Positions 6,297-26,911 of a DNA stretch of 64,000 nt are shown in pieces. The DNA comes from a virus. The position numbers and the translations under genes were made by a program. Numbering within the stretch: the stretch's first letter is position 1; every line of letters starts with the position of its first letter. The DNA is taken from IMG/VR virus record IMGVR_UViG_3300020401_001540, positions 1 to 64,000 of that record; one strand, written 5' to 3'. The notes beneath the pieces are model-generated. The model did no database searches. It had not been told where the DNA came from and saw only the letters and a list, made by a program, of their open reading frames with translations.

Positions 6297-6297
6297 C

Positions 6298-6326
6298 TTG
6301 ACAAACTTGTTTAAATATGCTATTAT
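6298..6326 (+). promoter_or_regulatory. Sigma-70 promoter for the VWA/metallopeptidase gene
   Basis: Perfect TTGACA (6298-6303), 17 bases, then TATTAT (6321-6326) with a TGC extension. It is sandwiched between the terminator of the ATPase gene and the AAGGAG ribosome site of the gene at 6360, so the two partner genes are transcribed independently from strong promoters. Confidence 0.8.
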
Positions 6327-6359
6327 ATAAACATAATAAGGCACTGAAGGAGAGGCAAC

Positions 6360-11316: not shown

Positions 11317-12454
11317 TGTACAGATCTTTCCTGTTTATTTTTCCTTGACCTTTTCTCTTGATTTCATCTACTGAAAATATTTTTGGTATTTTATACCTTA
11401 CTAGTTTGCTTTTCAATTTTTCTAAATCTACTTTACCTACTACTTCTGCATATACTCTATCATATCCAAATACTACTGCATCTTTGGCTCCACATTGTAA
11501 CAGTGCCTTTTCTACTTCGTAAGGCATAATTTTCCAACCACCCTTGATTATTGTTTCTTTTTTCCTACCAGTAATGAATAGATATCCGTCTTTGTCTATG
11601 TGTCCTATGTCTCCCGTAGCAAATCCGTTTACAATTATTTCATTATCGTCTTCAAATTTAATATCAATTTTATCCAACACAAATCCTACACTATTGTATT
11701 TTTGCGGATAGTGCATAATGCTAATAGTTCCTATTTCATTTATGCCATAACTATCAGTTGTAATGCAATTAAAATATTGTTGAGCTTTTATTTTAAAGTC
11801 TTTATACATTGGTGCACCAACGGTTCTTATATGTCTTATAGTCATATTTTCGTAAGGCACATCGGTCTCCATCATTCCATTTAAGACATTAGGACTTCCT
11901 ATAATAAATGTTGGATTTACTTTTGGCCAGTCTTTCCAAGGATTGTTAAGAACATGATAGGTTGCTCCGTACTTGTAACAAGCAGAAAATGTTTGAAACC
12001 CTATACATACCCATAGAGGAATAAAGTTAACAGTGCTGTCTTTATTGCACAAATTTGCATGTATTTGTATGTTATTATCTAAACCGTCTACTTCATATTG
12101 TTGTTTAGTAATTGGTACTATTCTTGGTTTGTCGGTACTACCGCTAGAACATATTCCTACCACTTCATCTTTCGCACACTGATTAAATTTAGGTTCTGGT
12201 AAAGTGTCATTCCATATATCAATATCATAAAAATCTAATTCAAAGGTTTTAGAATCTTTATCTATTATTACCGGACTGCAAACCTTCATAGCACCAAATA
12301 TCTTAAAAATATTTTTCCAATCACTATAAATGCCTATACGACAAGTTTTATCGTATCCCGCCTCTATTAGTTGATTAGTATATTCTTGAGCCAGCTTATC
12401 GAATTCTTGTTTGGTATAAGATTTTCCGCCCTCAAACTTTAGTATTATACTCAC
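11288..12454 (-). CDS. AMP-forming acyl/aryl-acid ligase (ANL superfamily), GTG start
   Basis: An adenylate-forming enzyme that activates a carboxylic acid with ATP. Core motifs are all present in order: SSGSTDKPRIVP (phosphate loop), YGINEIG (A5), TGDIGHID (A7), GRKKETIIKGG (hinge, A8) and KGQGKINRKDL with the C-terminal catalytic lysine (A10). At 388 residues it is shorter than the usual 500 or so; the missing part is in the N-terminal subdomain. The start is set at GTG 12454 because GAGGAAA lies eight bases upstream; the longer reading needs a TTG. It overlaps both neighbours. Context with an alpha/beta hydrolase and a tricarboxylate-type transporter suggests it activates an acid, imported or synthesised. 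Confidence 0.85.
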   Translation of the reverse strand: MSIILKFEGGKSYTKQEFDKLAQEYTNQLIEAGYDKTCRIGIYSDWKNIFKIFGAMKVCSPVIIDKDSKTFELDFYDIDIWNDTLPEPKFNQCAKDEVVGICSSGSTDKPRIVPITKQQYEVDGLDNNIQIHANLCNKDSTVNFIPLWVCIGFQTFSACYKYGATYHVLNNPWKDWPKVNPTFIIGSPNVLNGMMETDVPYENMTIRHIRTVGAPMYKDFKIKAQQYFNCITTDSYGINEIGTISIMHYPQKYNSVGFVLDKIDIKFEDDNEIIVNGFATGDIGHIDKDGYLFITGRKKETIIKGGWKIMPYEVEKALLQCGAKDAVVFGYDRVYAEVVGKVDLEKLKSKLVRYKIPKIFSVDEIKRKGQGKINRKDLYNEYIKDRKI

Positions 12455-13118
12455 GTATTTCCTCTTCAATCATGTTTAGGTATTGTAATCTATATTCATT
12501 ATGCGATTTCAATGTCGTAGGTTGTGTCCTGTAACCATAACGTTCACCCAAATATTTATGATTAGGTTTAAGTTGATCAAACTCTTGTTGACTCATTACT
12601 TTTCCTATGTTACCATATCTAACCATATGAAAAGATCTATCAATATCGCTTACCATAAATGCATGATGTACTCCAGGTAATTCATAATGTTTGGAAGGTG
12701 GATGCTTTAACATGTCTCTAAAAATTTTATACTTGTTTTGTCCATTATCTTCTGTACCAGCTATTACCACTGCATTTCTATAATCTACATCAAGCATGAA
12801 TTTTGCAATAGCAATACAGCCAGGATAAAATAGATAATTTTTCAAAAACTTTTTGTGATGAACAATACCTAAAAATGCACCTAAACTAAATCCTATATGT
12901 ATAAGATCACCTTCAGGAAAGTTTACATTAAACATTTCACTAAATGTGCAATCATGATCATCTTGGCGATGACTGTCACTCCACCATAGGTTTGTAATTC
13001 CGTGTGGTGTAAAGTAATCGATAAGATGTACTTCATAACCTTTGTCTTTGAAAAAATCATGGGTGAAGGTTTCGGCTGTGCCTATACCTCCACTACCATG
13101 TGATATAACTATTTTCAT
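12432..13118 (-). CDS. Alpha/beta hydrolase (dienelactone-hydrolase-like)
   Basis: A 228-residue alpha/beta hydrolase. The HGSGG oxyanion motif is at residues 6-10, the nucleophile elbow GFSLGA around residue 80, an acidic AGTED stretch near residue 120 and the final histidine in GVHHAF near residue 150, giving a plausible Ser-Asp-His triad. The last 70 residues extend beyond the fold. It lies between tctC (ATGA overlap) and the ligase gene, so it may hydrolyse an ester or thioester made in the same pathway. Substrate unknown. Confidence 0.75.
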   Translation of the reverse strand: MKIVISHGSGGIGTAETFTHDFFKDKGYEVHLIDYFTPHGITNLWWSDSHRQDDHDCTFSEMFNVNFPEGDLIHIGFSLGAFLGIVHHKKFLKNYLFYPGCIAIAKFMLDVDYRNAVVIAGTEDNGQNKYKIFRDMLKHPPSKHYELPGVHHAFMVSDIDRSFHMVRYGNIGKVMSQQEFDQLKPNHKYLGERYGYRTQPTTLKSHNEYRLQYLNMIEEEIREYNTKV

Positions 13119-14158
13119 TTTAAGCCAAGTTCGATCTTGAATACACTTTTCAAACCAAGTGCTTGTGTATTAAATGTTACAAGATCTTCTAGTGCTTCTA
13201 CAGTTACAAATGTCATAAGTGTATCTCTATGATTATTACCTGCCTCACCAATTTTCCATTCGTACTTGCCTACTTTCTTTTCGATGATAGCTCTGCTATC
13301 AGGATTATTTGACATAGCTGTTAAAGCATCTTGTAATTTTTCTGCATTAGGATTTCCTTGATTTACCCATAGTGCTTTCTGCATTCCATCTCTAAATGAC
13401 TTCACTAACTTATAAGCATTATAAAAATCACCACTTGGCTTTTGTCCCCAAAGCTGTTCAAATAATACTTCGAATTGATAACCTGGATAGTTTGGATCAT
13501 CTGCGTGACTTCCGTCAGCCTGTAGTATACCATGATGAAACCATATCACTGCATTTTCATCTGGCTCAACATGTTTTTTGTAAGCCGCAGGATTTTCTCT
13601 AGTTCCTGTTAACTCACCACGTTTAAATGCAAGACGTCTTTCACTACCGCTCATACCCTTGATCCATTTCACATTTTTCTTAAAGCAGGCAATATATTCG
13701 TCCATGCCTTTGTCAGGTCCACATATCAACATTGTCATTGCGTATGCTTCTGGTGTTTGTCCACTACCAGCCGCAAAGCTAGGAGTTGTCATATCTTCAC
13801 CAACACGTTTTCCTGCAATGATGTTAAGATTCATAAGACCAATACTTTCGTATTGACGATAATCATAATCAACTTCTTCTTGTAAAAAGGCAACACCATT
13901 ACCGCCGTGTGATACCATAATCACTTTGTCATCATTCCGCATTTCATTATGCCATTTGTTAAATCCCGGAATATCTCTTGCTCCGGGGATATGTTTGATC
14001 TTAATGTTTTCTCCTAGATACTTTTCAAGTTCTTTAGCAACAATCTCTGCCCAGACACTTGTGCCGCCACCTGGCTTTTGGGGTACTACCATTGTATAAT
14101 CTGCATGTGCAACTGTAGTAAACATTGCAAATACAAGTCCTAATAATAATTTACGCAT
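13115..14158 (-). CDS. tctC: TctC-like periplasmic solute-binding protein
   Basis: Extracytoplasmic substrate-binding component of a tripartite tricarboxylate transporter (TTT family). Residues 1-19 are a clear signal peptide with a hydrophobic core and AHA cleavage site; the mature protein opens with YTMVVPQKPGGGTSVWAEIVAKEL, of which the part VVPQKPGGGTS is the family hallmark. At 347 residues it is of the usual size or slightly longer. It overlaps tctA by eight bases. Families of this kind bind citrate, other di- and tricarboxylates or aromatic acids in the periplasm. Finding it in a phage genome is unusual; the signal peptide implies export by the infected host. Confidence 0.85.
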   Translation of the reverse strand: MRKLLLGLVFAMFTTVAHADYTMVVPQKPGGGTSVWAEIVAKELEKYLGENIKIKHIPGARDIPGFNKWHNEMRNDDKVIMVSHGGNGVAFLQEEVDYDYRQYESIGLMNLNIIAGKRVGEDMTTPSFAAGSGQTPEAYAMTMLICGPDKGMDEYIACFKKNVKWIKGMSGSERRLAFKRGELTGTRENPAAYKKHVEPDENAVIWFHHGILQADGSHADDPNYPGYQFEVLFEQLWGQKPSGDFYNAYKLVKSFRDGMQKALWVNQGNPNAEKLQDALTAMSNNPDSRAIIEKKVGKYEWKIGEAGNNHRDTLMTFVTVEALEDLVTFNTQALGLKSVFKIELGLK

Positions 14159-15584
14159 AGTTTATTTTCCTTTTTGATGTCAATCCCCATAAAAGTGTAA
14201 CAGCTATTGTAACACACAAACCGAGGAATATTGGTTTGTCTAGCAGTTTATCTACCGTATAAAGTCCAGTCATTTGTACTGTGAGTGCTTCTATTCTATC
14301 TGCTAGAATAAATGCAAATAGCAGTGCTGGTCTGCTAAATTTGTATCGTTTTGCCAGTAGTCCTACAATACTACAAATGGCAAGCATGAAATAATCTTCC
14401 CAACCGCCTGTATATTGGACACATGCCAAAATAATAAATCCAAGCAAAATTGGAAAGTAATACTTGTAAGGTATCTGTGCTATCTTCGCTATATATGGCG
14501 TCGTAAACAAGCATAGAGCGCCTACTAGCACGGTTGCAAGCATAAACCCGTACAACATACTATCAAAGAATTTAGAGTCATTTGCAAGCTCTAAAGTGCC
14601 CAATTCAAAATCCAAATATGCAAATAATCCAATTACAATAGCGGCAAAACTTGCACCAGGTATTCCAAATAAAACTGTCGGAATCATCGAAGTTGCTTTC
14701 TGTGCATTATTGGCTCCTTCAGGTCCAATCACTCCTTTAATATTTCCTTCACCAAATTTGTCTTTTGGATGGCTAGCTACTGTTGAACTATATGCCATCC
14801 AGTCTGCAACTGCTCCACCTAACCCAGGAAGCAGTCCTATAAATGCTCCTATAAATCCACCTCTGATAGCGTCCCATTTATTTTTCCATACAGCAAGTAT
14901 TCCTTCTTTGGTTTGTTTACCATTACCAAGTGCCACCATGCTGGTATTTGTTCTTTGTTTTAATCCTGATAATAATTCTGGTATAGCAAAAAGTCCTGCA
15001 ACAAGTGGCATCAGTTGGACACCGTCACCTAGATATTCCCAACCGCCTGTCCACCTATCTGCATTGGTGCTAGGATCAACTCCTATAAGTCCTACAAATA
15101 ATCCTATACATAAAGCTAACAAACTTCTAAACCAAAACTTATTTGTTACAAAAGTTACACACACAAGAGCTAACATTGTGAACGCCCATAATTCAGGTAC
15201 TCCGAATATCATAATCAATTGTGTGTAGTAAGGCAATAGGAAAAATGTCAAAGATCCCCATATAAGCCCATTCAGTGTACTTGTGGTTACTGCTGAACTA
15301 ATTGCATAAGTTGCCTGCCCTTTAAGTGCTAATGGAAAGCCATCTATCATTGTTGCCGCCGCACTATTAGCACCGGGTATACCTAGCAACACTCCTGTAT
15401 ACGTATCTCCTGTAGTGCTTGCCGCTACCACTGCCATAACAAATATAACTGCCAAATAAGGATCTGGAAATAATGTTATAAAAGAGAATACAAAAATTAA
15501 ACCCGTAGTTGCTCCTGCGCCTGGCAGTATACCAATTATCAGACCGTAAAATGTTCCTGCTAGTAATGCCAATACTGAAGCCAT
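14151..15584 (-). CDS. tctA: TctA-like large membrane permease
   Basis: The large membrane subunit of the TTT family, 477 residues with about twelve hydrophobic spans. The two family repeats are visible: GILPGAGATTGLIF and VLLGIPGANSAAATMIDG with FPLALKGQA in the N-terminal half, and GLLPGLGGAVADWMAY with IPTVLFGIPGASFAA in the C-terminal half. AAGGAAAA precedes the ATG. It is the first gene of the block and is followed by tctC. The small TctB subunit (about 150 residues, four spans) is not encoded anywhere in the block, so the pair must use a host TctB or work without one. Confidence 0.88.
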   Translation of the reverse strand: MASVLALLAGTFYGLIIGILPGAGATTGLIFVFSFITLFPDPYLAVIFVMAVVAASTTGDTYTGVLLGIPGANSAAATMIDGFPLALKGQATYAISSAVTTSTLNGLIWGSLTFFLLPYYTQLIMIFGVPELWAFTMLALVCVTFVTNKFWFRSLLALCIGLFVGLIGVDPSTNADRWTGGWEYLGDGVQLMPLVAGLFAIPELLSGLKQRTNTSMVALGNGKQTKEGILAVWKNKWDAIRGGFIGAFIGLLPGLGGAVADWMAYSSTVASHPKDKFGEGNIKGVIGPEGANNAQKATSMIPTVLFGIPGASFAAIVIGLFAYLDFELGTLELANDSKFFDSMLYGFMLATVLVGALCLFTTPYIAKIAQIPYKYYFPILLGFIILACVQYTGGWEDYFMLAICSIVGLLAKRYKFSRPALLFAFILADRIEALTVQMTGLYTVDKLLDKPIFLGLCVTIAVTLLWGLTSKRKINYA

Positions 15585-15672: not shown

Positions 15673-16398
15673 ATGAATACACGAATTTTTTCGTTAGTAA
15701 TGGAAAATTTACAGCATACATTTAGCTTGCCTAAATACGCTGATTTACAGATAGATAAACAAAGCATCATTGATGACTTACCCTTTACTCCTGCACGTAA
15801 AGAAAAATTTTGCCAGAGTATAATGAATGAATTAGATATAGATTACTTAGATTTAACAGGTACAATAGAAGAATTTGTGCAATCTTTAGATACTTTTTAT
15901 ATGAAAAGATTCTTTGGAGAAATTTGGAAACCAAATACAGATGAGCATACCTATAGTGGTTGGAGTATAGTTGACAGAATAAATGAACGCAATCCAAAAA
16001 ATGTTCTTGACTTTGGGTGTGGTTACAATCAATTTAAACCACGAATAAAAAATTTAACTGGTATTGATCCGTTTAATGAAAATGCAGACTACATGGTTGA
16101 CATTTTAGATTTCAATGTAGATGAAAAATACGACCACATGATTGTATTTGGCAGTCTAAACTTTGGTGATGAAAACGATATAAGATTACGTTTCAAAAAA
16201 TTATATTCCCTACTAGCAACAGGTGGTAGAATGTATTTTAGAGTCAATCCAGGAATACTTTGGCCTAAAGGTCCTTATGTAGATATCTTTCCGTGGAGTT
16301 TTGAATTTGCATACGCCCTTGCAAAAGAACATAATTGTAAATTAGAACAATACAAAAAAGATCGAAAACGCTTTTACTTTGAAATCTTAAAGATGTGA
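15673..16398 (+). CDS. Class I SAM-dependent methyltransferase-like protein
   Basis: A 241-residue protein with the Rossmann SAM-binding loop VLDFGCGYNQF near residue 110, a following LTGIDPFN strand (acidic residue for ribose), and FGSLNFGDE and the later GGRMYFRVNP strand that fit the class I methyltransferase fold. The N-terminal 90 residues are a separate helical part. The start is placed at ATG 15673 with GAAAG upstream; a GTG at 15661 in frame is the alternative. It is the only plus-strand gene between two minus-strand blocks and ends tail to tail with the sulfotransferase-like gene. Substrate unknown. Confidence 0.65.
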   Translation: MNTRIFSLVMENLQHTFSLPKYADLQIDKQSIIDDLPFTPARKEKFCQSIMNELDIDYLDLTGTIEEFVQSLDTFYMKRFFGEIWKPNTDEHTYSGWSIVDRINERNPKNVLDFGCGYNQFKPRIKNLTGIDPFNENADYMVDILDFNVDEKYDHMIVFGSLNFGDENDIRLRFKKLYSLLATGGRMYFRVNPGILWPKGPYVDIFPWSFEFAYALAKEHNCKLEQYKKDRKRFYFEILKM

Positions 16399-17115
16399 TC
16401 TATTTTCAAATAATACTTTACACTTATCATAATTTTCTTTATTAACAATTAGTCCTAATTTTTTACACATCTCTTCATATACATCAAATTTCAACACATC
16501 ATTTATTTCTGTAATAATAACATCTTTATCTGTTGAATGTGTTTTATAGTTTTTTATTTGATTTTCAAACTCGTTTACTAATACTTGCTTCATTGTTATG
16601 CCTTGCTGTTTAGCTTTGTCTTCATATAAATCTTTGTAAAGATATTCCTTATTTTTAGGATCAACAAAATAATAGTAACTACTACGCATCCATCTTTCAA
16701 TTAATAAATCAATGTCATTTGGAATAACCACTACATATTGAGCAGGATCAAAAAACTTTTTTGTCTCATCTAGATTATCGTGTAAAGTATAAATGAAATG
16801 ATTAGGATATAATTTTTTCTTCCAGGCTTGTATATCATTTGGTGTTGTGTTTATTCCTCTTGAACGGGCAAAACTCAAGACTGGTGGTATTGTATATTCA
16901 GGATCTAACCCTTTAGGCTTTGCTCCCTTGAATCTCTTGTTGAAATGCATTTTACTGAAATCTTTATCTTTACCCATATAAGGTAACCATGGATGTTCAT
17001 TGTTTTGTTCATGATCGTACCATGCAACATTATCGCAACAAGCTATCATACGTCCTAGCATGTGTCCTCCACTGCCTTGCGGAAAATTTAATGTAATACA
17101 ATTACTTTCTACCAT
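16387..17115 (-). CDS. Sulfotransferase-like P-loop protein, uncertain
   Basis: Not firmly recognised. The N-terminus has LNFPQGSGGHMLGRM, which resembles the phosphosulfate-binding loop of sulfotransferase-like phage proteins, and a central ERWMRSSYYYF could be the matching 3'-phosphate site. The rest is alpha/beta with a basic C-terminal half. The ATG at 17115 is used; the reading back to 17139 needs a TTG. It starts inside the end of the truncated AMP-binding gene and is the last gene of the halogenase block. If the guess is right it would transfer a sulfuryl group, but a plain kinase-like or unknown protein is equally possible. Confidence 0.45.
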   Translation of the reverse strand: MVESNCITLNFPQGSGGHMLGRMIACCDNVAWYDHEQNNEHPWLPYMGKDKDFSKMHFNKRFKGAKPKGLDPEYTIPPVLSFARSRGINTTPNDIQAWKKKLYPNHFIYTLHDNLDETKKFFDPAQYVVVIPNDIDLLIERWMRSSYYYFVDPKNKEYLYKDLYEDKAKQQGITMKQVLVNEFENQIKNYKTHSTDKDVIITEINDVLKFDVYEEMCKKLGLIVNKENYDKCKVLFENRSHL

Positions 17116-17782
17116 AATACCAATAGCATCCGTTTTCAAATTTTACAATATCACCTGTGGCAAACCAATCATCATATACACAGATTTTACCTTTTACAAA
17201 AAGTTCTTTTCTTATAATTTTAACCTCACAAAAAGTTGTATCTCCAATTATTGTGTGTAAAGGTAAATCATAAGCCTCAGGATCTTGTTCTGTATAAGTT
17301 TTGTTTATTGCCATAGGTCCTATTTCACTCATTCCCCAATTAGCAATAAATGTTGCTCCTTTTGCTACATATCTATTAATGCATTCTGCAGGTACTCTAT
17401 CACTACCACAAGCAATAATTTTATCTTTTAAATCTAGATTATTCCAACCTTTTGTTTTTGTGATAGCAAGTGCCATACCCGGTGTAAGATGACTATGTGT
17501 AAAATGTTTTATCTTGCTAACCCAACTAAAAGGATTAAATTGTTCAATGTGTATTTCTGCATCAATTTCTAAAGCTGGCAATGTTTGTGCAAATAAACCA
17601 CCTGCATGGTCTAATTTACACACGGTATAAATTTTACTGGTTCTTGTAATTTTTTGAACATCACGTGCGGCTTGATTTGCATGTTTTATTTTATCAGGGC
17701 TTTGATAAATTTGCTTTGCTGGTCCTGTTGTACCACTAGAACTAATACTAGTTCCGTTTTTTAAAATGTTTTTCAGTTCCAT
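17102..17782 (-). CDS. Truncated AMP-binding (ANL) core protein
   Basis: A 226-residue fragment of the ANL adenylate-forming fold. It starts almost at the phosphate loop SSSGTTGPAK (residues 13-22), continues with NWGMSEIGPMA (A5 motif) and DDWFATGDIV (A7), and ends right at GRK, the hinge before the C-terminal lid. It therefore lacks both the N-terminal subdomain and the lid with the catalytic lysine. The sequence beyond its stop encodes an unrelated protein, so this is not a simple frameshift. It may bind ATP or an adenylate without full catalysis, or work with a partner. It overlaps both neighbours in an intact operon, which argues for a maintained function. Confidence 0.75.
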   Translation of the reverse strand: MELKNILKNGTSISSSGTTGPAKQIYQSPDKIKHANQAARDVQKITRTSKIYTVCKLDHAGGLFAQTLPALEIDAEIHIEQFNPFSWVSKIKHFTHSHLTPGMALAITKTKGWNNLDLKDKIIACGSDRVPAECINRYVAKGATFIANWGMSEIGPMAINKTYTEQDPEAYDLPLHTIIGDTTFCEVKIIRKELFVKGKICVYDDWFATGDIVKFENGCYWYYGRK

Positions 17783-17954
17783 CAGTGATCTTCTTAGCTA
17801 ATTTGTAAGGTGTAAAAGCAAATAAAAAAGGAAATATGGCATGTATTGTACCAGTTATAAAGACTAACAAAGCTAGTATGTTAAAGTACATAGCATAAAA
17901 GAAGTGTTTAAAATAATTAGATTTTACTTTTTTAAGATGATTCCATTCTATCAT
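17748..17954 (-). CDS. Small membrane protein, DUF6356-like
   Basis: A 68-residue protein with one or two hydrophobic spans. The pattern NYFKHFFYAM, then a hydrophobic helix, then GTIHAIFPFLFAFTPYKLAKKI resembles the DUF6356 family, which has the same HAxxPFLF ending of its membrane segment and is of the same length. The ATG at 17954 forms an ATGA overlap with the halogenase stop; the longer reading would need a TTG. Function of the family is unknown. Its position may tie the pathway to the membrane. Confidence 0.6.
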   Translation of the reverse strand: MIEWNHLKKVKSNYFKHFFYAMYFNILALLVFITGTIHAIFPFLFAFTPYKLAKKITDGTEKHFKKRN

Positions 17955-19027
17955 AGCATATGATCCTTCAACAAATTCCAACTATGTTTTCCCATAAGTC
18001 CTTGATGTCCATTCTCACTGTAAAAATATATATCATTTACAGCCTCCTCTTTATTCTCTTTGTAATAATCCCAATACTTTCCTTTCCTAGTATTACACGA
18101 ATATAATGCCTTTATCCATTTATGTATTCCTGTATATGTTTTATTAATCAATCTGTTATATGCATCAGGCTTGTCCTCCAATAAAAGAAAATTTTTGATT
18201 CCGCTTTGAGCCGCAAAATTTGCAGTAGCATTTAAAGGTTCTATAAATCCTGCACTCAAACCTAAAAATAAAACATTATCTTTCCAAGCCTGCTCTGGTA
18301 TTCTAGTTTCAAATTTGATTACGTTTTCATGTTTAATTCCTGTTGTGTTTTCAAATTCTTTTATTGCATTGTTAATAGAAATGTATTTAGAACTAAAAAC
18401 ATAACCGTAACTTAATCTTGTTTGTAAACTTATACTCCATAACCACCCATTGCTTAGAGCTTGTGATTTAGTGTAAGGAATATATTTGCTTTGAGCATTA
18501 CCAATCACTGCATAGTCATTTATAAGGAAATCACTTTTATGATGCACTAAACCTACTTGATCAGAAAGCACACCGTTTTGTCCTGTAGCATCAACATAAA
18601 ACTCATCTTTATTATATTGATCTTTTGTAAATTGGGAATTTACAATTTCGAAATTATCTTGCTGTTCACACCATTTCTGTATCACTTGACAAAATCCAGG
18701 AGCATCTATATGATAAGCATAAGTTTGATGTCTATCCGTTTCTAATGCTTTAGGCTCATTTGCAGAGTAATAAAGCCAACTATTATTATCTTTCCAACCA
18801 GAAAATAATGTCCCGTATTTGAAAAAACCATTTACCTTGTTTAAAAATTCTTGATCTGACATACCTATCAATTTAGGTATTTCGTTTATTGTAGGTACAG
18901 TAGATTCGCCTATTTTTCTAACGTTTGTATTTGGATCTCTAAATAATGTAACTTGTTTGTTTGCTTTTAGCAAATACAGACATGCTATCCAAGACGCAGT
19001 ACCACTTCCAATTACATTAATTTTCAT
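17951..19027 (-). CDS. Flavin-dependent (tryptophan-type) halogenase homologue
   Basis: A 358-residue FAD-dependent enzyme of the tryptophan halogenase family, which uses FADH2, oxygen and halide to chlorinate or brominate an aromatic ring. Seen: the dinucleotide loop GSGTASW at residues 7-13; KIGESTVP; NGFFKYGTLFSGW with the lysine at the place of the catalytic lysine; GWLWSISLQTRLSYGYVFS, the family WxWxI motif (with Ser in place of Pro); and GLSAGFIEPLNAT, the family EPL motif. It is shorter than the 500-plus residues of PrnA-type enzymes, so the substrate cap is reduced. A reductase for FADH2 could be one of the nitroreductase-like flavoproteins nearby or a host enzyme. It is the third gene of a six-gene operon. 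Substrate unknown; a non-halogenating flavoenzyme of the same family is possible. Confidence 0.8.
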   Translation of the reverse strand: MKINVIGSGTASWIACLYLLKANKQVTLFRDPNTNVRKIGESTVPTINEIPKLIGMSDQEFLNKVNGFFKYGTLFSGWKDNNSWLYYSANEPKALETDRHQTYAYHIDAPGFCQVIQKWCEQQDNFEIVNSQFTKDQYNKDEFYVDATGQNGVLSDQVGLVHHKSDFLINDYAVIGNAQSKYIPYTKSQALSNGWLWSISLQTRLSYGYVFSSKYISINNAIKEFENTTGIKHENVIKFETRIPEQAWKDNVLFLGLSAGFIEPLNATANFAAQSGIKNFLLLEDKPDAYNRLINKTYTGIHKWIKALYSCNTRKGKYWDYYKENKEEAVNDIYFYSENGHQGLMGKHSWNLLKDHML

Positions 19028-19544
19028 ACCGCTTCCTTATTTCAAAATATCTATCAACATTTAATTTCCAAATACTTTGCCATGAATTGAAAACTTGCTC
19101 GTTACAGATCCATTCAACCATCTTACCTCTAGCCATAGCAGAAAAACTATTGTGTATCCTATTCATTCTCCCACTGTTATCTCTATCAGTGTTTGTTGTT
19201 ATGTACAAAGGCTTACCTTGTGCAAATTCTATTTGTAAAGGAAGATGTGCATATATACCCCAACTTTGCATTTGATATCTATTGAGTCCTTTTATAGGTC
19301 TTGGTGATAATTGAGCACCTCTGTACAATGCTCTATATCCATCCTTGAACGGATGTATACCAGTCATTGCAATTATATGATTAAAGTCATTGTCATATGT
19401 TGCGTACCAAGCACCTTCTTCTAAACACCAATCCCAACGCATTTCTTTTAGACTGCTGTTATTTTTAAAACCTTTCAAGGAACATTTAAAAATAAATTCT
19501 TGCACAGCAGGATTTAATTCTTGCACTCTTTCTGTAGAAATCAT
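19017..19544 (-). CDS. GNAT-like hypothetical protein, 175 aa
   Basis: No firm family. The overall layout (an N-terminal helix pair, the strand ATYDNDFNHIIAMTGIHPF, a Gly/Arg-rich stretch YRALYRGAQLSPRP and a later LYITTNTD strand) is compatible with an N-acetyltransferase (GNAT) fold, but the acetyl-CoA loop is not clear. It overlaps its neighbours by four and eleven bases, between the dioxygenase and halogenase genes, so it belongs to the same operon and probably the same pathway. Confidence 0.5.
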   Translation of the reverse strand: MISTERVQELNPAVQEFIFKCSLKGFKNNSSLKEMRWDWCLEEGAWYATYDNDFNHIIAMTGIHPFKDGYRALYRGAQLSPRPIKGLNRYQMQSWGIYAHLPLQIEFAQGKPLYITTNTDRDNSGRMNRIHNSFSAMARGKMVEWICNEQVFNSWQSIWKLNVDRYFEIRKRYEN

Positions 19545-20161
19545 TTTGCTCTCATTCGCTCAATGACTGTCATTACTGTTTTAGGATTAGTTCCTACATT
19601 AAGTACAATCATATAAGCATCTTCGCTCCCAGCATTAAACAAATGATGTTGTTTTGCAGTATTAAGAAAATATGCAGAGCCGTTTTTCCAAGGTAAAATT
19701 TTATCTTCTAGCATAAACGTAAACTTAGGATATTCCATATTTCTCATAGGCACAATTATTCTAAAAGAATGTAAGTCAGTAGATTTGAAATCTCTGTGTG
19801 GTGGAAAAAATCCTCCTGGAGGTATTTTTAAGAAGTGTGAACGTCCTACATAAGGTTGCCAATGTTCGCATAACTTTTTAATTTCAGGATGCTCGTAAAC
19901 AGGTGTAGGTACATTAATATCCATCTCTGTTGGCATTGATGCAGGATCTTCTGCATAAAAGGAATCAAGGTCAGGACGTCCTGACAGACCTCCGTCTAAA
20001 CTTGTAATACTTAATCCCCAACGATTTATGTTTTTTCTTGGATTATATTTTACGTAGGTAAAATTTTCTTCTGTCCATTGCACTATTTTTTTTGGATCTT
20101 TTAGTGTGATATCTAGTTCTATAAAATCTCCGTATGTGCATAATGTAACGTATTCTAGCAT
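19541..20161 (-). CDS. Aspartyl/asparaginyl hydroxylase-like Fe(II)/2OG dioxygenase
   Basis: A 206-residue protein with a cupin-type iron site. PPHRD (about residue 120) gives the His-x-Asp-type pair, and KQHHLFNAG (about residue 170) the distal histidine; between them lie SFRIIVPM, FTFML and WKNGSAYFLNT, the order seen in the aspartyl/asparaginyl beta-hydroxylase family. Such enzymes hydroxylate side chains using 2-oxoglutarate and oxygen. A strong GGAGAGG ribosome site precedes the ATG. It is the first gene of the halogenase operon. Substrate could be a peptide, amino acid or small molecule. Confidence 0.7.
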   Translation of the reverse strand: MLEYVTLCTYGDFIELDITLKDPKKIVQWTEENFTYVKYNPRKNINRWGLSITSLDGGLSGRPDLDSFYAEDPASMPTEMDINVPTPVYEHPEIKKLCEHWQPYVGRSHFLKIPPGGFFPPHRDFKSTDLHSFRIIVPMRNMEYPKFTFMLEDKILPWKNGSAYFLNTAKQHHLFNAGSEDAYMIVLNVGTNPKTVMTVIERMRAK

Positions 20162-20175
20162 TAACCTCTCCTGAT

Positions 20176-20202
20176 ATTATACTTATTTGGTTTCAACAAC
20201 AA
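20176..20202 (-). promoter_or_regulatory. Possible promoter for the halogenase operon
   Basis: On the minus strand a perfect TATAAT (20181 down to 20176) lies 15 bases upstream of the dioxygenase start, with TTGTTG at 20202-20197 as a weak -35 and a short 15-base spacer. The -10 box is good, the -35 and spacing are poor, and the leader would be very short. Confidence 0.3.
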
Positions 20203-20222
20203 ATTTTTGCATTATGGCACGT

Positions 20223-20230
20223 AATAAATA
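20223..20230 (+). promoter_or_regulatory. T4-type late promoter for nitroreductase-SGNH block
   Basis: AATAAATA (preceded by T), 26 bases before the GTG at 20256, in the divergent 94-base gap. AAGGAGA follows at 20243-20249 as the ribosome site. It suggests that this accessory block is expressed late, with virion genes. Confidence 0.6.
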
Positions 20231-20255
20231 TGTATAACGAATCAAGGAGACTATT

Positions 20256-21242
20256 GTGGGTAATAAATTTGGCAAAAGTAAAAAGTTTGGTGAAAGTGTA
20301 GAAGAAGGGAGAGGTGAATCCTGGACTAGAATTTGCCGTATTGCCTATGGGTTTAATGTAAAAGATAAAACAAGAGACACTGCTATAAAGCACATGTTCT
20401 ATAACTGGGACCAAGAGATGGAAGTTATACGCAATATGCAAAAGTGTCAGCGTAATTGGGATTATAGCCAACCTGTACATCCTGAAACTATTGATTATCT
20501 ACTATGGCACGCAGAAAATGCTCCATCAAAACAACACGAAGCATACTACGATGTATACTGGACAGCAGACAGAAAAGTAATTGAAGAATGTTCAAAGTAT
20601 ACCTGGGGATCAACACACACTAGAACTCCGCCTTCAACATGGCGTAACACACAAGCTAATGCTAACTTGTACATACTTTTTGTAGCAAAGCAACCTGAAA
20701 CACAACAAAACTGTAATAGTGACGGAACATTAAAAGATAACAAACATCATGCACGTTGGGAAAATTCTTATGTCAGTATAGGTATTGCTATGGGACTTGT
20801 TATGAGAGCCGCAAATAGTTTAGGACTTGCAACAGGCTGTAATAAAAGTCATGGAGACCTAAATGGCAATATGTTCTGGGAAAAGAAACTAGGAATAGAA
20901 CAAGATGTGTTGGATGGTAAGAAAAAAATTGCCTATGGAATAGGAATAGGTACTCCACAAGAAGGTAGACCAAGATGGGAAACTGATGATTATGAATTAG
21001 CAATTGGTTCAGGTAACGGAAGTCATCTTACCACACTAGACGAAAGTCATCCTGACTGGACAGAAAGGCGTCAACTTCCTGCACCTTGGGACAAAAAGTT
21101 TAATAAAATTAAAATTGTAGACATAAGAACCACAGATAAAGCAACTGATCCTTATGGTGTAGAACACAAAATACCAAGCGAATCTTCTATCAAAGTAAAC
21201 ACTATAAGGAAGAGAATAATCAACGTAACGGAAATAAAGTAA
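20256..21242 (+). CDS. Nitroreductase-family flavoprotein, GTG start
   Basis: A 328-residue member of the FMN-dependent nitroreductase fold. The N-terminal third is an unusual basic extension; the fold begins near DYLLWHAENAPSKQH (the xxAPSxxN-type FMN-binding motif), continues with ANLYILFVAK and SIGIAMGLVMRAANSLGLATGCNKS (the Gly-rich helix typical of the family) and later GIGIGTPQEGRPR. The start is GTG 20256 after AAGGAGA; no ATG lies nearby in frame. Such enzymes reduce or oxidise a range of substrates with NAD(P)H. It heads a three-gene plus-strand block with two SGNH hydrolases. Confidence 0.75.
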   Translation: MGNKFGKSKKFGESVEEGRGESWTRICRIAYGFNVKDKTRDTAIKHMFYNWDQEMEVIRNMQKCQRNWDYSQPVHPETIDYLLWHAENAPSKQHEAYYDVYWTADRKVIEECSKYTWGSTHTRTPPSTWRNTQANANLYILFVAKQPETQQNCNSDGTLKDNKHHARWENSYVSIGIAMGLVMRAANSLGLATGCNKSHGDLNGNMFWEKKLGIEQDVLDGKKKIAYGIGIGTPQEGRPRWETDDYELAIGSGNGSHLTTLDESHPDWTERRQLPAPWDKKFNKIKIVDIRTTDKATDPYGVEHKIPSESSIKVNTIRKRIINVTEIK

Positions 21243-21940: not shown

Positions 21941-22569
21941 ATAGATTAGTAGCCTTTGGTTGTAGTCACACTTACGGCGAAGGTTTAAAGGATTGTTGGG
22001 TTAATGGGAAAGCAGGAAAACTTCCAAGCAAATATGCATGGCCTCAACTACTTGCAGATAGATTGAAAAGGAAGTGTTTTAATAAAGGTATGGAGGGTGC
22101 CTCTAATAAATTTATTTGGCATAAAATTTTAAACACAGAATTTACGGACAAAGACATTGTTGTAATCTTATGGACATATTATAACCGCACATGTATTTTA
22201 GAAAACAAAGATTCATTCCAAAGAATTATGGTAAGTGATGTTGACAATCCTTTTAGACCAGAACAAGAAAGATTGTTTGCAAAAAATTATTACGAAAATT
22301 ATTACACCGACTATGACGTGGTTACACACAGTATAGGATATTTTAATCATATTAAGAGTTACTTAGATAACCTAAAAGTAAAAAACTTTCATCTAATTAA
22401 TAAAGAACCTTTTGCAAGGCATCCTATTCCGGAATGGAATCAAGTTGTTTTACATCCTATAGACTTGCATTTTGATTTACCTCTCGCCGAAGATAACAAA
22501 CATCCTGGTGAGCAAGCACATCAATCGATAAGTGATCATGTATATTCTATAATCGACCAATCAAAGTAA
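21937..22569 (+). CDS. SGNH/GDSL-type hydrolase, copy 2
   Basis: A 210-residue paralogue of the preceding protein. Matching blocks: VAFGCSHTYGEGL, KGMEGASNKFIWHKIL and NKHPGEQAHQSI, with Asp/His near the end. The two genes overlap as ATGA, which is consistent with tandem duplication. The gene meets the minus-strand methyltransferase gene tail to tail with a 23-base overlap. Confidence 0.75.
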   Translation: MNRLVAFGCSHTYGEGLKDCWVNGKAGKLPSKYAWPQLLADRLKRKCFNKGMEGASNKFIWHKILNTEFTDKDIVVILWTYYNRTCILENKDSFQRIMVSDVDNPFRPEQERLFAKNYYENYYTDYDVVTHSIGYFNHIKSYLDNLKVKNFHLINKEPFARHPIPEWNQVVLHPIDLHFDLPLAEDNKHPGEQAHQSISDHVYSIIDQSK

Positions 22570-23224
22570 ATCTTGTACCTCTTGGATCTGGTACTTCATC
22601 TTCAATTAATACCTCAGCGTTTTCAGGTAACTGGTCTTTGAACTCTTGTATAGTGTGTACACAATTTGTATGTGTAGGTATATCAAACATAGCATTTGAT
22701 TGAAAAGCAAAGTAAGCTGGCGATACTCTACTCCACCAAGGATTTTTGTACTTGGGCCAAGGTCCCCATTCCTTCATAGGAGCCATGTGTTCACAAGATG
22801 TATTAATAAACAAATCGCATGTCGTATATTGATCTCTGTATTTTTCAAAAACATCACCCGTAATAAAATCTATATCGAATCCTTTAAACAATTCATATTT
22901 GGCTCGGTATATTACATCAGAATCAACATCGATACAAGTAATTTTTTTTACTTCGTTATAGAAAGCAGGTATTAAAATACTGCCATACCAACTACCCATT
23001 ATAACTATTTCCGAATCTTTGTTTAAAAAATTTAAACTTTTAATATGATCAATTAAATTCAATTTTGATAAAAACTGATTTGAACTGAAACTATCTAACA
23101 CATCTTTTTGTCTTAGTTGCCTTAGCCTATTCTTATCTGCATCAGGCGTATTTGCAAAGTCACGCATTTCTTGTGTAACTAAATTATCAATTATTGTTTG
23201 TAATTGTTTTACATCTATCGCCAT
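22547..23224 (-). CDS. SAM-dependent methyltransferase-like protein
   Basis: A 225-residue protein with a Rossmann-like methyltransferase core: VIMGSWYGSILIP (glycine-rich loop), KITCIDVDSDVI (acidic residue binding the SAM ribose), DIDFITGDVFEKY and DLFINTSCEHM, the last resembling the motif IV region. The N-terminal 65 residues are helical. It is the final gene of the 16-gene minus-strand operon. Substrate unknown. Confidence 0.65.
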   Translation of the reverse strand: MAIDVKQLQTIIDNLVTQEMRDFANTPDADKNRLRQLRQKDVLDSFSSNQFLSKLNLIDHIKSLNFLNKDSEIVIMGSWYGSILIPAFYNEVKKITCIDVDSDVIYRAKYELFKGFDIDFITGDVFEKYRDQYTTCDLFINTSCEHMAPMKEWGPWPKYKNPWWSRVSPAYFAFQSNAMFDIPTHTNCVHTIQEFKDQLPENAEVLIEDEVPDPRGTRFTLIGRL

Positions 23225-23946
23225 TTTACTACATCCTGTATTGGTGGTTTACGATCTGTTCCTTTATTATCATGGTCTATTAGCCATTGGTATCTATAAT
23301 ATTCTCCGTATCCTATTGACATAATAGAATGAACTTTTGCCAATTGATTTTCGTTGTCATACCACAACCAAGGCGTGTCTTTCCATTTATAGGGTCTTTT
23401 AGGAAGGCATGCACAATATGATACATCAATTCCTTGTTCTAAACATAAAACTGTTAAGGCTTGTGCAAATAAACCAACTTCAAAGCTAGTGCTTTCTGCT
23501 ATGTGCTCTACTTTATCTACTTCACATTGTTCGGCATAATGGCCTTCTACTCTTACTTTTTCCTTGTAAAACTCATTAGGCTCAGGTACAACTCTTGAAG
23601 CAAATACTATCAAGTGTGAATTTTCTAATACGTGTGCATATGAGGGATTAATTTCAAACTTATATTCTACCTTCATTTTAGGATTAGCTTTTGTGTCTAC
23701 TTCAAGACCTTTCTCATCATAACGAATGTGATTACCTACTACTTTGTCATATATAATTTTTTTTCTTTTATCACCAGGACCCAAAACGTTTACAGTATAT
23801 GGCATAAAATTATTCTTTGATGGAGAAACTTTCCATGCTTTATAGAGTATTTTTGATAAAACATCATCAGATACATTTTTGTCACTGTATCTTAACACAT
23901 GATGTCTTTTTTCCAATGTAGTGAGTATGTCTTTTTTCTTACTCAT
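23215..23946 (-). CDS. Nitroreductase-family protein (paralogue A)
   Basis: A 243-residue nitroreductase-like protein: RHHVLRYSDKNVSDD at the N-terminus, AWKVSPSKNNFMPY (FMN phosphate site, PSxxNxxP), and STSFEVGLFAQALTVLCLEQGIDVSYC, the Gly-rich family helix, ending in HSIMSIGYGE. The start is ATG 23946, with GGAGT upstream, overlapping the carbamoyltransferase stop as ATGA. It is clearly related to the protein encoded at 26263-26910 three genes upstream; the two bracket the carbamoyltransferase and a radical SAM gene. Confidence 0.75.
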   Translation of the reverse strand: MSKKKDILTTLEKRHHVLRYSDKNVSDDVLSKILYKAWKVSPSKNNFMPYTVNVLGPGDKRKKIIYDKVVGNHIRYDEKGLEVDTKANPKMKVEYKFEINPSYAHVLENSHLIVFASRVVPEPNEFYKEKVRVEGHYAEQCEVDKVEHIAESTSFEVGLFAQALTVLCLEQGIDVSYCACLPKRPYKWKDTPWLWYDNENQLAKVHSIMSIGYGEYYRYQWLIDHDNKGTDRKPPIQDVVKWR

Positions 23947-25421
23947 TTTTTCATACTCCAATCATTTATCACTAACATATCTAAATCAGTTTTATTAAAA
24001 GTTTCAATTGCATCTTGTGGTGTTTCAACAATAGGCTCTTGACAGTTAAAACTTGTATTCAGGACCATAGGAATTCCTGTAAGTTTATAAAATTCATTTA
24101 TTAGATCGTAATATAGTTCATTTTCCGATCTCTTGACTGTTTGTATTCTAGCAGTGCCGTCAATATGAGTTACGCCTGGAATCTCGCCAGATGTCACTGG
24201 CATAATTCTTGACATGTATGGACTTGGCTGGTTAGTATCAAAATAATCTTGATAATGTTCATATAACACACTTGGTGCAAATGGTCTAAAGTCTTCACGT
24301 TTTTTAATCTTACTGTTGATTACATCTTTGATATTTGGATTCCTCGGATCTGCTAGTATGCTTCTATTTCCTAATGCACGGTTGCCGCTTTCGCTTTTAC
24401 CTTGAAACCAACCCACTATTTTTCCATCAGCAATAGCTTGTGCAACTTCCTTCATATCTAATTTGTTTTTACCTTTGTACTCATATTCTTTGCCTGCATA
24501 CACTGTTGGTATATGTACTTCGCCTTCTAAAAAATATTTGGCATGCATATATGTGCCTAGTGCTTGTCCTTCATCTCCTACCGCAGGAGGCACATGTACA
24601 TTCTTATAATGTTTTGTAAGTTCTTCGTTCATATATCCGTTATATGCTACGCCGCCAGCTACACATATATTTTCGCTTGACTTCAACGGATAGACAAATT
24701 GTTTTACCAAATCAATAGTAACTTTCTGTAGTGTAAATGCAATATCTTCTCTAGCTACTCGTTCTATTACCTTATGTGAGAATTTAGGCAACGTGTGATT
24801 AGGATCCATTAGATATGCTTCTATCATTGCGTGGGCTCTGTGATTGTATGCGCCATAACCTGCTAGTCCCATTACCTTTCCTGCATCTAAATATTTGAAG
24901 CCTATATCCTGAGATAATCTATTCCATAAACCACCAATTGGTATTTTTTTACTCAGATCAGTAATATCTCCTTGGGAATTAATAAAGATACAACTAAATT
25001 TCCAACCTCTTCCGTCTATAGCAAGAACATCAGATTGTTCATAGCCACTGCTTAATAGTGCGTAAGTGCCGTGTGATTGATGGTGATCAATGTAATATAC
25101 ATTGTCACGATAGTATGGTTCCCAAATATTTCTTGGCTTGAATTTTGTAAATTCTTGATCAACAAAATGCTCATTAATAAGTTCTTCAACAAATTGATAT
25201 CCTAAATTGGATATTGTAAATGCAAATTGATTATCTGCGTCTCTTGATTTATACTTTGGTAATACATGTTCCATAAAAAATTGTTTACTAGGATTAGGAT
25301 CGTGCGGCCAATCATAATTTAAATTATGCTTGCGTCTGTTATGACGTTCTATTTGATTATGAAACGTGCCATCATATGTGTTATGGTCATGTATGTTTAG
25401 TGCTACTGAATAAATGTTCAT
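23943..25421 (-). CDS. O-carbamoyltransferase (NodU/CmcH/TobZ family)
   Basis: A 492-residue carbamoyltransferase that moves a carbamoyl group from carbamoyl phosphate via carbamoyl-adenylate to a hydroxyl of a sugar or antibiotic. The N-terminal Kae1-like domain has YYIDHHQSH (metal histidines), VLAIDGRGW and CVAGGVAYNGYMNE; the C-terminal domain has GNRALGNRSILADPR, KKREDFRPFAPSVL and MVLNTSFNCQEPIV, all hallmark stretches. It is close to full length for the family. Overlaps of four bases with both neighbours place it inside the operon. The acceptor is likely a hydroxylated glycan or small molecule made by the other gene products. Confidence 0.9.
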   Translation of the reverse strand: MNIYSVALNIHDHNTYDGTFHNQIERHNRRKHNLNYDWPHDPNPSKQFFMEHVLPKYKSRDADNQFAFTISNLGYQFVEELINEHFVDQEFTKFKPRNIWEPYYRDNVYYIDHHQSHGTYALLSSGYEQSDVLAIDGRGWKFSCIFINSQGDITDLSKKIPIGGLWNRLSQDIGFKYLDAGKVMGLAGYGAYNHRAHAMIEAYLMDPNHTLPKFSHKVIERVAREDIAFTLQKVTIDLVKQFVYPLKSSENICVAGGVAYNGYMNEELTKHYKNVHVPPAVGDEGQALGTYMHAKYFLEGEVHIPTVYAGKEYEYKGKNKLDMKEVAQAIADGKIVGWFQGKSESGNRALGNRSILADPRNPNIKDVINSKIKKREDFRPFAPSVLYEHYQDYFDTNQPSPYMSRIMPVTSGEIPGVTHIDGTARIQTVKRSENELYYDLINEFYKLTGIPMVLNTSFNCQEPIVETPQDAIETFNKTDLDMLVINDWSMKK

Positions 25422-26254
25422 TGTTCTAATGCTATTTTTTCTAAAATTTCTAATCTACGTTTTGCAGGTCTTGGTGGAATAATATCCATACAAATTTTAC
25501 AATAACTTTCAAATTGAAACAAATCAAAATTCATCATTTTATCTATGTTTTCTTTTGTAACGTCAAAGGCTCTTGAGCCATTAATTACCTTTCTACTGCA
25601 ATGTCTTATCTTTTGAATTTCAAAATCAATTACAGGAACCAAAGGGAACTTTGCACATACCCTTCTGTCTAGTTCCGGTGCTTGTACCATTTCGTGATCA
25701 CTAAAAAAGTCAGGAGATCTTGAATTGTATTCTTTGAATTCTGTGTTTTTATGATCAATAATACTAAGATCATGTTTATCTCTATATGCAAAATATCCTG
25801 GTGTTTCGATTATAAGATTGTAATTATTTAAATCATTAGGCTCAAACCAATCATAGTTTCCTAATTTTTCAATTCGGTCTTCATAAAAGTCAAGTATAAG
25901 GTGTTCAATATATATAATCTCAGGATCTTCTAATATTTCTGGATAAAACTTCCTAACAAGTGAGTTTGATAAAACCTGTATTTGAAGATTTTCATACTTT
26001 TTTATTTCTGCTATTACTTCATTAAGATTTTTTATAAGTCCAGGTTCGCCTCCCAGTAAACAAATTCTAGTCTTGTATGGGCTTAAATACTGGCATGTTC
26101 TACGTAGAAAATCCATGTCTACTGTCAAATAACGCATTTCCAATGTCCATGCTGTACAATAGTGGCATGACTTGTTACAAGACTTTGACAGATAAAAGTC
26201 CACTGTAAGATAATCCGAATTCTTCAAATCAGCTAGAGTATTGATTTTTTTCAT
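25418..26254 (-). CDS. Radical SAM protein with C-terminal cysteine cluster
   Basis: A 278-residue radical SAM enzyme. The cluster motif is at Cys26, Cys30, Cys33 (CNKSCHYC); LLGGEPG follows as the SAM motif, and LSNSLV on the next strand. C-terminal cysteines in RRVCAKFP, RHCSRK and CKICMDIIPP look like an auxiliary iron-sulfur site. It overlaps the carbamoyltransferase gene by four bases. The CHYC form and short C-terminal domain resemble phage and biosynthetic SPASM-type enzymes; substrate unknown. Confidence 0.8.
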   Translation of the reverse strand: MKKINTLADLKNSDYLTVDFYLSKSCNKSCHYCTAWTLEMRYLTVDMDFLRRTCQYLSPYKTRICLLGGEPGLIKNLNEVIAEIKKYENLQIQVLSNSLVRKFYPEILEDPEIIYIEHLILDFYEDRIEKLGNYDWFEPNDLNNYNLIIETPGYFAYRDKHDLSIIDHKNTEFKEYNSRSPDFFSDHEMVQAPELDRRVCAKFPLVPVIDFEIQKIRHCSRKVINGSRAFDVTKENIDKMMNFDLFQFESYCKICMDIIPPRPAKRRLEILEKIALEQ

Positions 26255-26262
26255 ACTAATAT

Positions 26263-26910: not shown

Positions 26911-26911
26911 C

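What the first reader, a model, noticed from the sequence alone, without database searches (positions are those of the whole stretch)
17951..20161. Halogenase-dioxygenase-GNAT operon in a phage
A compact flavin halogenase homologue with all main motifs is translationally coupled to an aspartyl-hydroxylase-like gene and a GNAT-like gene. The WxWxI motif has Ser for Pro and the protein is about 150 residues shorter than PrnA, so substrate and even reaction may differ. Possible targets include a peptide, an aromatic metabolite or a fibre residue.
Basis: partly seen in the sequence, partly recalled or inferred. Interest (0 to 1): 0.6.

Follow-up and report, generated by a model that had tools for sequence, protein, structure and literature searches.

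The report
Swappable halogenase-like gene in jumbo phages
A marine giant phage carries a short relative of chlorine- or bromine-adding flavin enzymes inside a six-gene operon, and related phages carry the same enzyme, a very different one, or only a deletion scar at exactly that spot, so it looks like an exchangeable tailoring step rather than a fixed pathway.

Summary
The three genes exist as described: an Asp/Arg-hydroxylase-like gene, a GNAT-fold gene and a PF04820 (flavin-dependent halogenase) gene, overlapping by 4 and 11 bases. The claim of "all main motifs" fails: the catalytic Lys (K70 = PrnA K79) is kept, but the catalytic Glu (PrnA E346) is Asn266 in every ortholog, WxWxIP reads WLWSIS, and the tunnel motif reads FIEPLNATA. 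Two tryptophan-binding regions are missing, so free tryptophan is an unlikely substrate. The operon runs on into a DUF6356 protein, a truncated AMP-binding enzyme (mini-ANL) and an unknown gene. In IMG/VR phages, GNAT, DUF6356 and mini-ANL recur together; the halogenase is optional (9 of 41 loci). At one syntenic site I found this enzyme, a PF04820 enzyme of another lineage (26% identity), or an 18-codon in-frame deletion scar. One 1.3-kb block containing the gene differs at 2 bases between phages 75-85% alike nearby. dN/dS is about 0.03. The phage is a jumbo-type fragment. Phage halogenases, and clusters with carbamoyltransferases and hydroxylases, are already published; the exchangeable slot, its partners and the Glu-to-Asn lineage appear new. 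Best reading: a selected, exchangeable tailoring flavoenzyme, probably halogenating a non-tryptophan aromatic. Chemistry is unproven.

The parts
19541..20161 (-). AAH206: Asp/Arg-hydroxylase-like (2OG/Fe-type, HRD...H motif) 206-aa gene, first of the operon
   Evidence: PF05118 21.7 bits, just below cut-off; 45% to Mosig EXVC030M Asp_Arg_Hydrox protein; upstream SD AGGAGAGG
19017..19544 (-). GNAT175: GNAT-fold acyltransferase-like protein, 175 aa; overlaps AAH206 by 4 nt
   Evidence: AF2 pLDDT 88; Foldseek to FdhC, AAC(6')-Ii, FeeM, E 4e-4 to 1e-3; no Pfam hit
17951..19027 (-). HALO: short PF04820 flavoenzyme, 358 aa; Lys70 = PrnA K79; Asn266 = PrnA E346; overlaps GNAT175 by 11 nt
   Evidence: Pfam E 3e-58; PDB sequence and fold matches; motif table; dN/dS about 0.03
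17748..17954 (-). DUF6356 small hydrophobic protein, 68 aa from the ATG overlapping the HALO stop (77 aa if a TTG start at 17981 is used)
   Evidence: PF19883 E 4e-10 for the longer form; 60-67% to Pelagibacteraceae chromosomal copies
17102..17782 (-). AMPb226: truncated AMP-binding (mini-ANL) protein: A3 SSGTTG, A5 NWGMSE, TGD and GRK present; N-terminal ~170 PF00501 positions and the C-terminal Lys domain absent
   Evidence: PF00501 E 4e-10, profile 170-377/384; 66 viral loci; 9 bacterial loci
16387..17139 (-). 250-aa conserved protein (242 aa from an internal ATG), last gene of the overlapping series; function unknown
   Evidence: no Pfam, PHROG or NCBIfam match; follows AMPb226 in many phages
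20162..20255 (.). 94-bp divergent intergenic region in front of the operon
   Evidence: sequence; gene on the other strand starts at 20256

Best explanation
HALO is a functional flavoenzyme of the PF04820 (variant A halogenase) superfamily that serves as an exchangeable tailoring step in a jumbo-phage operon. The operon core is a GNAT-fold acyltransferase, a small DUF6356 protein and a truncated acyl-adenylating (ANL) protein, preceded here by an Asp/Arg-hydroxylase-like enzyme. Proposed mechanism (inferred): reduced FAD, from a host or phage flavin reductase, reacts with O2; halide attacks the flavin hydroperoxide to give HOX; HOX passes through the tunnel to Lys70 and halogenates an electron-rich aromatic substrate other than free tryptophan, probably a precursor or product of the acyl-transfer module. 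Shown: homology, fold, the conserved Lys, loss of the catalytic Glu and of the Trp-binding regions, operon structure, strong purifying selection, and swap and loss of the gene at one site. Inferred: the reaction, the halide, the substrate and the benefit (varying a product between competing phages, as in other tail-fibre-adjacent variable clusters).
For: PF04820 E 3e-58; AF2 model (pLDDT 83, pTM 0.86) matches PyrH at E 5e-28, TMq 0.79, and PrnA, MibH and VirX1 at TMq about 0.77-0.80. Lys aligned with PrnA K79 and present in all 11 slot-type and related proteins. dN/dS about 0.03 for HALO against close orthologs, among the lowest in the module. Slot behaviour: 358-aa type A in several phage lineages, 388-aa type B (26%) at the same junction in L015 with homology breaking at the gene's ends, in-frame scar MYNVMGKHSWSLLKENML in L016/L017, type C between GNAT and mini-ANL in L070-L075/L078. 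A, B and C as one clade rejected, p-AU 1e-50; C groups with S-SSM5/S-SSM7, B with other jumbo-phage proteins. 1,314-bp block with 2 differences between L006 and L011 covering the whole gene. Trp4 is needed for tryptophan activity in tested enzymes (PMC8269204) and is absent here.
Against: The catalytic Glu position is Asn in every ortholog; PMC8407142 says Glu-to-Gln inactivates a characterised enzyme and Glu-to-Asp leaves low activity. WxWxIP, Fx.Px.Sx.G and FX[DE]PX[EFL] are each broken at one or more positions. No experiment links any PF04820 enzyme of this lineage to halogenation. The fold search cannot separate halogenases from flavin monooxygenases of the same architecture. The mini-ANL lacks the domain that normally carries the A10 Lys, so the proposed pathway chemistry is uncertain. 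The L006/L011 block could reflect an assembly chimera on the L011 side.
Confidence: 0.48

Rival explanations
1. Flavin monooxygenase, not halogenase: with the catalytic Glu lost, the enzyme hydroxylates an aromatic substrate or a peptide residue, as QhpG, GoxB and LodB do in quinone-cofactor maturation.
For: Sub-threshold NCBIfam matches to GoxB (E 2e-8) and LodB (E 4e-6), whose models are 358 and 361 positions long; QhpG, a peptide-Trp dihydroxylase, has a halogenase-like structure with a comparable channel (PMC7876137); Glu-to-Asn and altered tunnel motif; hydroxylase-like and radical-SAM neighbours.
Against: Those NCBIfam scores are far below cut-off (33.6 vs 400 bits); PF04820 and PDB Trp-halogenase matches are far stronger; both Trp of WxW, proposed to block monooxygenation, and the Lys are kept.
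Confidence: 0.25
2. Post-translational halogenase (or hydroxylase) of a virion or host-surface protein: the enzyme modifies an exposed Tyr or Trp in a tail-fibre protein, with the operon acting as a fibre-decoration system.
For: The operon lies in a long variable region between tail-fibre-like genes (9234-10346 and 36145-41562); a short protein without the C-terminal Trp-binding region could leave an open site; in S-SRM01 a halogenase gene lies between a tail-fibre gene and a gp37-gp38 adhesin gene.
Against: The recurrent partners are acyl-activating and acyl-transfer proteins, which suggest a small-molecule or acyl product; in other phages the gene lies in replication or transcription-gene regions (S-SSM5, S-SSM7, S-B64).
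Confidence: 0.15
3. Degenerate or non-catalytic paralog kept for binding or assembly.
For: Catalytic Glu replaced and several motifs altered; the gene can be deleted in frame.
Against: dN/dS about 0.03 with Lys70, GEST and WxW intact; whole-gene spread between phages.
Confidence: 0.07

Closest known systems
VirX1 (cyanophage Syn10 flavin halogenase, PDB 6QGM) and PHROG 2928 'tryptophan halogenase'
   Same: Phage-encoded PF04820 flavoenzyme with conserved Lys; same fold
   Different: VirX1 is 531 aa with an active-site Glu described as activating (PMC8407142); HALO is 358 aa, about 20% identical, Asn at that position, in a GNAT/mini-ANL operon
Short cyanophage halogenases (S-SSM5 388 aa, S-SSM7 367 aa) and Campylobacter phage CP21 (399 aa)
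   Same: Compact PF04820 proteins already in databases; S-SSM7 and CP21 also lack the Glu (Gln)
   Different: Different clades from HALO; no GNAT, DUF6356 or mini-ANL annotated beside them
S-SSM6a cluster predicted to make a halogenated amino-acid/sugar metabolite (PMC7824862)
   Same: Carbamoyltransferase, a 2OG/DSBH gene overlapping a halogenase gene, methylase, behind large tail-region genes
   Different: No GNAT175, DUF6356 or mini-ANL homolog found there; its halogenase is 495 aa and 22% identical to HALO
PrnA / PyrH tryptophan halogenases
   Same: Fold, FAD site, Lys79 equivalent, GEST motif
   Different: HALO lacks Trp2 and Trp4 regions and about 180 residues; Glu346 is Asn
GoxB / LodB / QhpG maturases
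   Same: Flavoproteins with halogenase-like architecture; similar length for GoxB and LodB
   Different: Match far below the family cut-offs; no quinoprotein target gene seen nearby
Chromosomal DUF6356 > mini-ANL pair of Pelagibacteraceae and other marine bacteria
   Same: Same two proteins in the same order (DUF6356 60-67%, mini-ANL about 50% in Pelagibacteraceae)
   Different: No GNAT or halogenase beside them; rare (one close match among 147 Pelagibacterales genomes)

Membership tests
Flavin-dependent halogenase (PF04820, variant A) | Profile match over the curated cut-off | tested here: met
   198 bits vs 21; note the cut-off is lenient, the same search rings in E. coli
Flavin-dependent halogenase (PF04820, variant A) | Halogenase fold | tested here: met
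   Top 50 PDB fold matches are halogenases of this superfamily, best E 5e-28
Flavin-dependent halogenase (PF04820, variant A) | Catalytic Lys (PrnA K79) | tested here: met
   K70, invariant
Flavin-dependent halogenase (PF04820, variant A) | Catalytic Glu (PrnA E346) | tested here: not met
   Asn266 in all orthologs
Flavin-dependent halogenase (PF04820, variant A) | WxWxIP | tested here: not met
   WLWSIS: both Trp and Ile kept, Pro to Ser
Flavin-dependent halogenase (PF04820, variant A) | Fx.Px.Sx.G / FX[DE]PX[EFL] tunnel motif (PMC8407142) | tested here: not met
   FIEPLNATA: Ser to Ala, Gly to Ala, [EFL] to Asn
Flavin-dependent halogenase (PF04820, variant A) | Halide-dependent C-X bond formation | not testable with these tools
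   needs enzyme assay
Tryptophan halogenase | Trp2 and Trp4 binding regions (PMC8269204) | tested here: not met
   PrnA 101-105 falls in a gap and 443-461 lies beyond the aligned end of the protein
GoxB/LodB/QhpG maturase | NCBIfam equivalog score | tested here: not met
   33.6 vs 400, 26.3 vs 400, 17.5 vs 240 bits
GNAT superfamily (GNAT175) | GNAT fold | tested here: met
   Foldseek prob 1.00, TM about 0.5-0.57
GNAT superfamily (GNAT175) | CoA pyrophosphate-binding R/QxxGxG/A motif | tested here: inconclusive
   not seen by eye in the alignment; no structure-based check made
ANL adenylate-forming enzyme (AMPb226) | Core motifs A3, A5, TGD | tested here: met
   alignment A4; PF00501 39.5 bits
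ANL adenylate-forming enzyme (AMPb226) | C-terminal domain with A10 Lys | tested here: not met
   protein ends at GRK, profile position 377/384; same end in the four family members aligned
Asp/Arg beta-hydroxylase (AAH206) | PF05118 over cut-off | tested here: inconclusive
   21.7 vs 22.6 bits; HxD...H visible in the sequence
Phage halogenated-metabolite cluster (PMC7824862) | Carbamoyltransferase + 2OG/DSBH + halogenase + methylase near tail genes | tested here: met
   CARB492, AAH206, HALO, MT225 within 8 kb (MT225 named a methyltransferase by its match to a Mosig gene so annotated); S-SSM6a region compared

The most novel reading that the evidence does not exclude
Marine jumbo phages run a 'halogenase slot': a gene-sized position between an acyltransferase and a DUF6356/mini-ANL pair where PF04820 enzymes from different lineages are swapped, shared as near-identical blocks or deleted in frame, so that competing phages diversify a secreted or surface-bound product. 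The window's lineage, with Lys kept and Glu replaced by Asn, would be a new mechanistic class of the superfamily.
Probability: 0.3. Interest if true: 0.72.

Novelty: new variant of a known kind. Interest (0 to 1): 0.52.

Why it matters
Phage halogenase genes have been listed for over a decade without a known role. Here nature supplies matched operons with enzyme A, with enzyme B and with a clean in-frame deletion, which makes the role directly testable by comparing products. The Lys-without-Glu lineage under strong purifying selection tests how much of the accepted halogenase mechanism is essential. The GNAT/DUF6356/mini-ANL module, partly shared with marine alphaproteobacterial chromosomes, is a widespread phage pathway of unknown product.

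Tried and rejected
Three-gene trio as the unit: rejected, AAH206 is absent in L008-L010 and the downstream genes recur more widely. T4-like cyanophage or Kyanoviridae origin (my first idea from the Mosig match): replaced by a jumbo phage, because the baseplate wedge is nearest to Phosso, Atu_ph07 and SCTP-2. Single origin of the slot enzymes: rejected. Empty site as ancestral absence: rejected for L016/L017, which keep both ends of the gene. Defence system: no PADLOC match. Bacterial relatives of HALO: none at the sensitivity of one scan. GNAT175 in the bacterial genomes that hold the mini-ANL: none (no positive control). The 250-aa gene looked sulfotransferase-like to me by eye; the window protein has no Pfam match, and alignment A7 held a wrong fourth row, so the PDB search with it is void. 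Promoter scan: no more hits than shuffles.

Full report
What is there. The window lies in a 72,864-base IMG/VR virus record. On the minus strand, 17951-20161 holds three overlapping genes as reported: AAH206 (19541-20161), GNAT175 (19017-19544) and HALO (17951-19027). The series continues past the reported end: DUF6356 (17748-17954 from the ATG that overlaps the HALO stop), AMPb226 (17102-17782) and a 250-aa gene (16387-17139), again with overlapping frames; HALO has its own AGGAAG inside the end of GNAT175.

The phage. PHROG and tblastn matches show baseplate, tail-fibre and lysozyme genes. The baseplate wedge protein is nearest (about 35%) to Sinorhizobium phage Phosso, Agrobacterium phage Atu_ph07 and Salicola phage SCTP-2, genomes of 440-490 kb. 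Two adjacent genes at 5160-7631 match an ATPase family and a protein with a vWA-like stretch; a MoxR-vWA pair is reported for jumbo group 2.2 (PMC7824862). I conclude that this is a fragment of a jumbo-type phage. A shared cassette (nitroreductase, carbamoyltransferase, radical SAM, DegT, methyltransferase, AAH; 32-67%) with Pelagibacter phage Mosig and the alphaproteobacterial DUF6356/mini-ANL copies point to a marine alphaproteobacterial host; this is an inference.

The halogenase-like protein. PF04820 matches at 198 bits; that cut-off is lenient, since the same family rings in E. coli, so the fold and residue tests carry more weight. The AF2 model (pLDDT 83, pTM 0.86) matches PyrH, PrnA, MibH, BrvH and VirX1. 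In the alignment with PrnA, Lys70 falls on K79. The PDB pair 2apg (EPLESTG) and 2jkc (E346D, EPLDSTG) identifies E346 as the second Glu; HALO reads EPLNATA there, so E346 is Asn266, invariant in the orthologs aligned in A1. WxWxIP is WLWSIS, and the tunnel motif has Ser to Ala and Gly to Ala. Other phage PF04820 proteins vary at the Glu too: Glu in type B and most cyanophage proteins, Ser in type C, Gln in CP21, S-SSM7 and S-PM2; Lys was kept in every protein whose N-terminal half aligned (the S-PM2 reading frame, locus L121, lacked that part). Tryptophan regions Trp2 (PrnA 101-105) and Trp4 (443-461), as defined in PMC8269204, fall in a gap and beyond the aligned end of HALO. Enzymes lacking Trp4 did not act on tryptophan in that study. 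Short phage members are not new: S-SSM5 388 aa, S-SSM7 367 aa, CP21 399 aa.

The neighbours. GNAT175 has no Pfam hit, but its model (pLDDT 88) matches GNATs including FdhC, AAC(6')-Ii and the N-acyl amino acid synthase FeeM. AMPb226 covers only positions 170-377 of PF00501 and lacks the C-terminal domain. A complete 393-aa ligase lies at 11288-12469. AMPb226 relatives occur in 66 IMG/VR loci and in none of the annotated isolate phages searched. Of 41 dereplicated loci, GNAT lies within 3.5 kb in 33, DUF6356 within 1.5 kb in 25, and a PF04820 gene within 3.5 kb in 9. So the halogenase is an accessory to a wider module. Loci L070-L075 and L078 have a cytochrome P450 in front and a radical-SAM gene behind (L072, L073 and L078 by their near-identical FDH and AMPb matches).

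The slot. Type A (358-360 aa) follows GNAT in the window, L006/L012, L007, L011 and L008-L010. In L015 the flanks are 83-84% identical to the window, but homology stops at the end of GNAT and resumes at the start of DUF6356, with a 388-aa PF04820 protein, 26% identical, in between. In L016 and L017 the same place reads MYNVMGKHSWSLLKENML, which is the first four residues and the last fourteen of type A, in frame. These phages descend from type A carriers and lost the gene by internal deletion. Type C sits at the equivalent place in a different gene context. The tree puts C with S-SSM5 and S-SSM7 (100/100), B with other jumbo-phage-contig proteins (99/98), and A on a long branch alone; one clade for A, B and C is rejected (p-AU 1e-50; long branches are in play). 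Between L006 and L011 a block of 1,314 bases (L006 5952-7265) covering the end of GNAT, all of HALO and nearly all of DUF6356 has 2 differences, against roughly 75-85% on both sides. The L006 side is confirmed by the second contig L012 (99.9%); the L011 side rests on one contig. HALO has dN/dS of 0.028-0.032 in three comparisons, so the Asn266 form is under strong selection.

How it most likely works. See Best explanation. The Lys and the Thr of the halide-site segment are present, so HOX formation and delivery are plausible; the missing Glu suggests a substrate that does not need that residue's help or another residue in its place. The kept WxW argues against direct monooxygenation (PMC8407142), yet the weak GoxB/LodB likeness and the QhpG precedent (PMC7876137) keep that rival alive. 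The three nitroreductase-family genes in the region (20256-21242, 23215-23961, 26263-26910) could supply reduced flavin; this is speculation.

Relation to what is known. VirX1 established phage halogenases biochemically (PMC8407142). A cyanophage cluster with carbamoyltransferases, 2OG enzymes and a halogenase was predicted to make a halogenated metabolite or to decorate polysaccharide (PMC7824862); I compared S-SSM6a and found that combination but no GNAT175, DUF6356 or mini-ANL. Hence 'new variant of a known kind'. The new parts, as far as the libraries searched show, are the exchangeable slot with its scar, the acyl-transfer partners and the Lys-without-Glu lineage. The paper library holds open-licence papers only, so subscription work may exist that I could not see.

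Noticed in passing
window 13115-15584 (-): TctA permease gene (PF01970, E 3e-94) followed by a TctC-like protein (by eye; no Pfam match): tripartite tricarboxylate transporter genes in a phage, conserved beside the module in several relatives.
   Followed up: partly
window 11288-12469 (-): Complete compact acyl-CoA/AMP ligase (393 aa) in the same region as the truncated one; the pair may work together.
   Followed up: no
L070-L075, L078: Phage cluster: cytochrome P450, GNAT, PF04820 enzyme, mini-ANL, large radical-SAM protein, hydroxylase-like, methyltransferase; looks like a natural-product pathway.
   Followed up: partly
L112-L116; L109-L111; L117: DUF6356 > mini-ANL gene pair on Pelagibacteraceae chromosomes (same locus in several species) and other marine bacteria; the SAR116 copy has the mini-ANL alone.
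   Followed up: partly
L006:5952-7265 vs L011: 1,314-bp block with 2 differences between phages about 75-85% identical on both sides: recent exchange of HALO plus DUF6356, or an assembly chimera on the L011 side.
   Followed up: partly
window 42195-57203 (-): A 5002-aa open reading frame upstream of tail-fibre-like genes.
   Followed up: no
window 5160-7631 (+): ATPase next to a protein annotated HNH endonuclease in PHROGs but with a vWA-like DMSGS stretch; resembles the MoxR-vWA pair of jumbo group 2.2.
   Followed up: partly
window 22547-27985 (-) and 20256-21242 (+): Nitroreductases, carbamoyltransferase, radical SAM, DegT aminotransferase and methyltransferase shared with Pelagibacter phage Mosig at 32-67% identity: a second mobile cassette.
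   Followed up: partly
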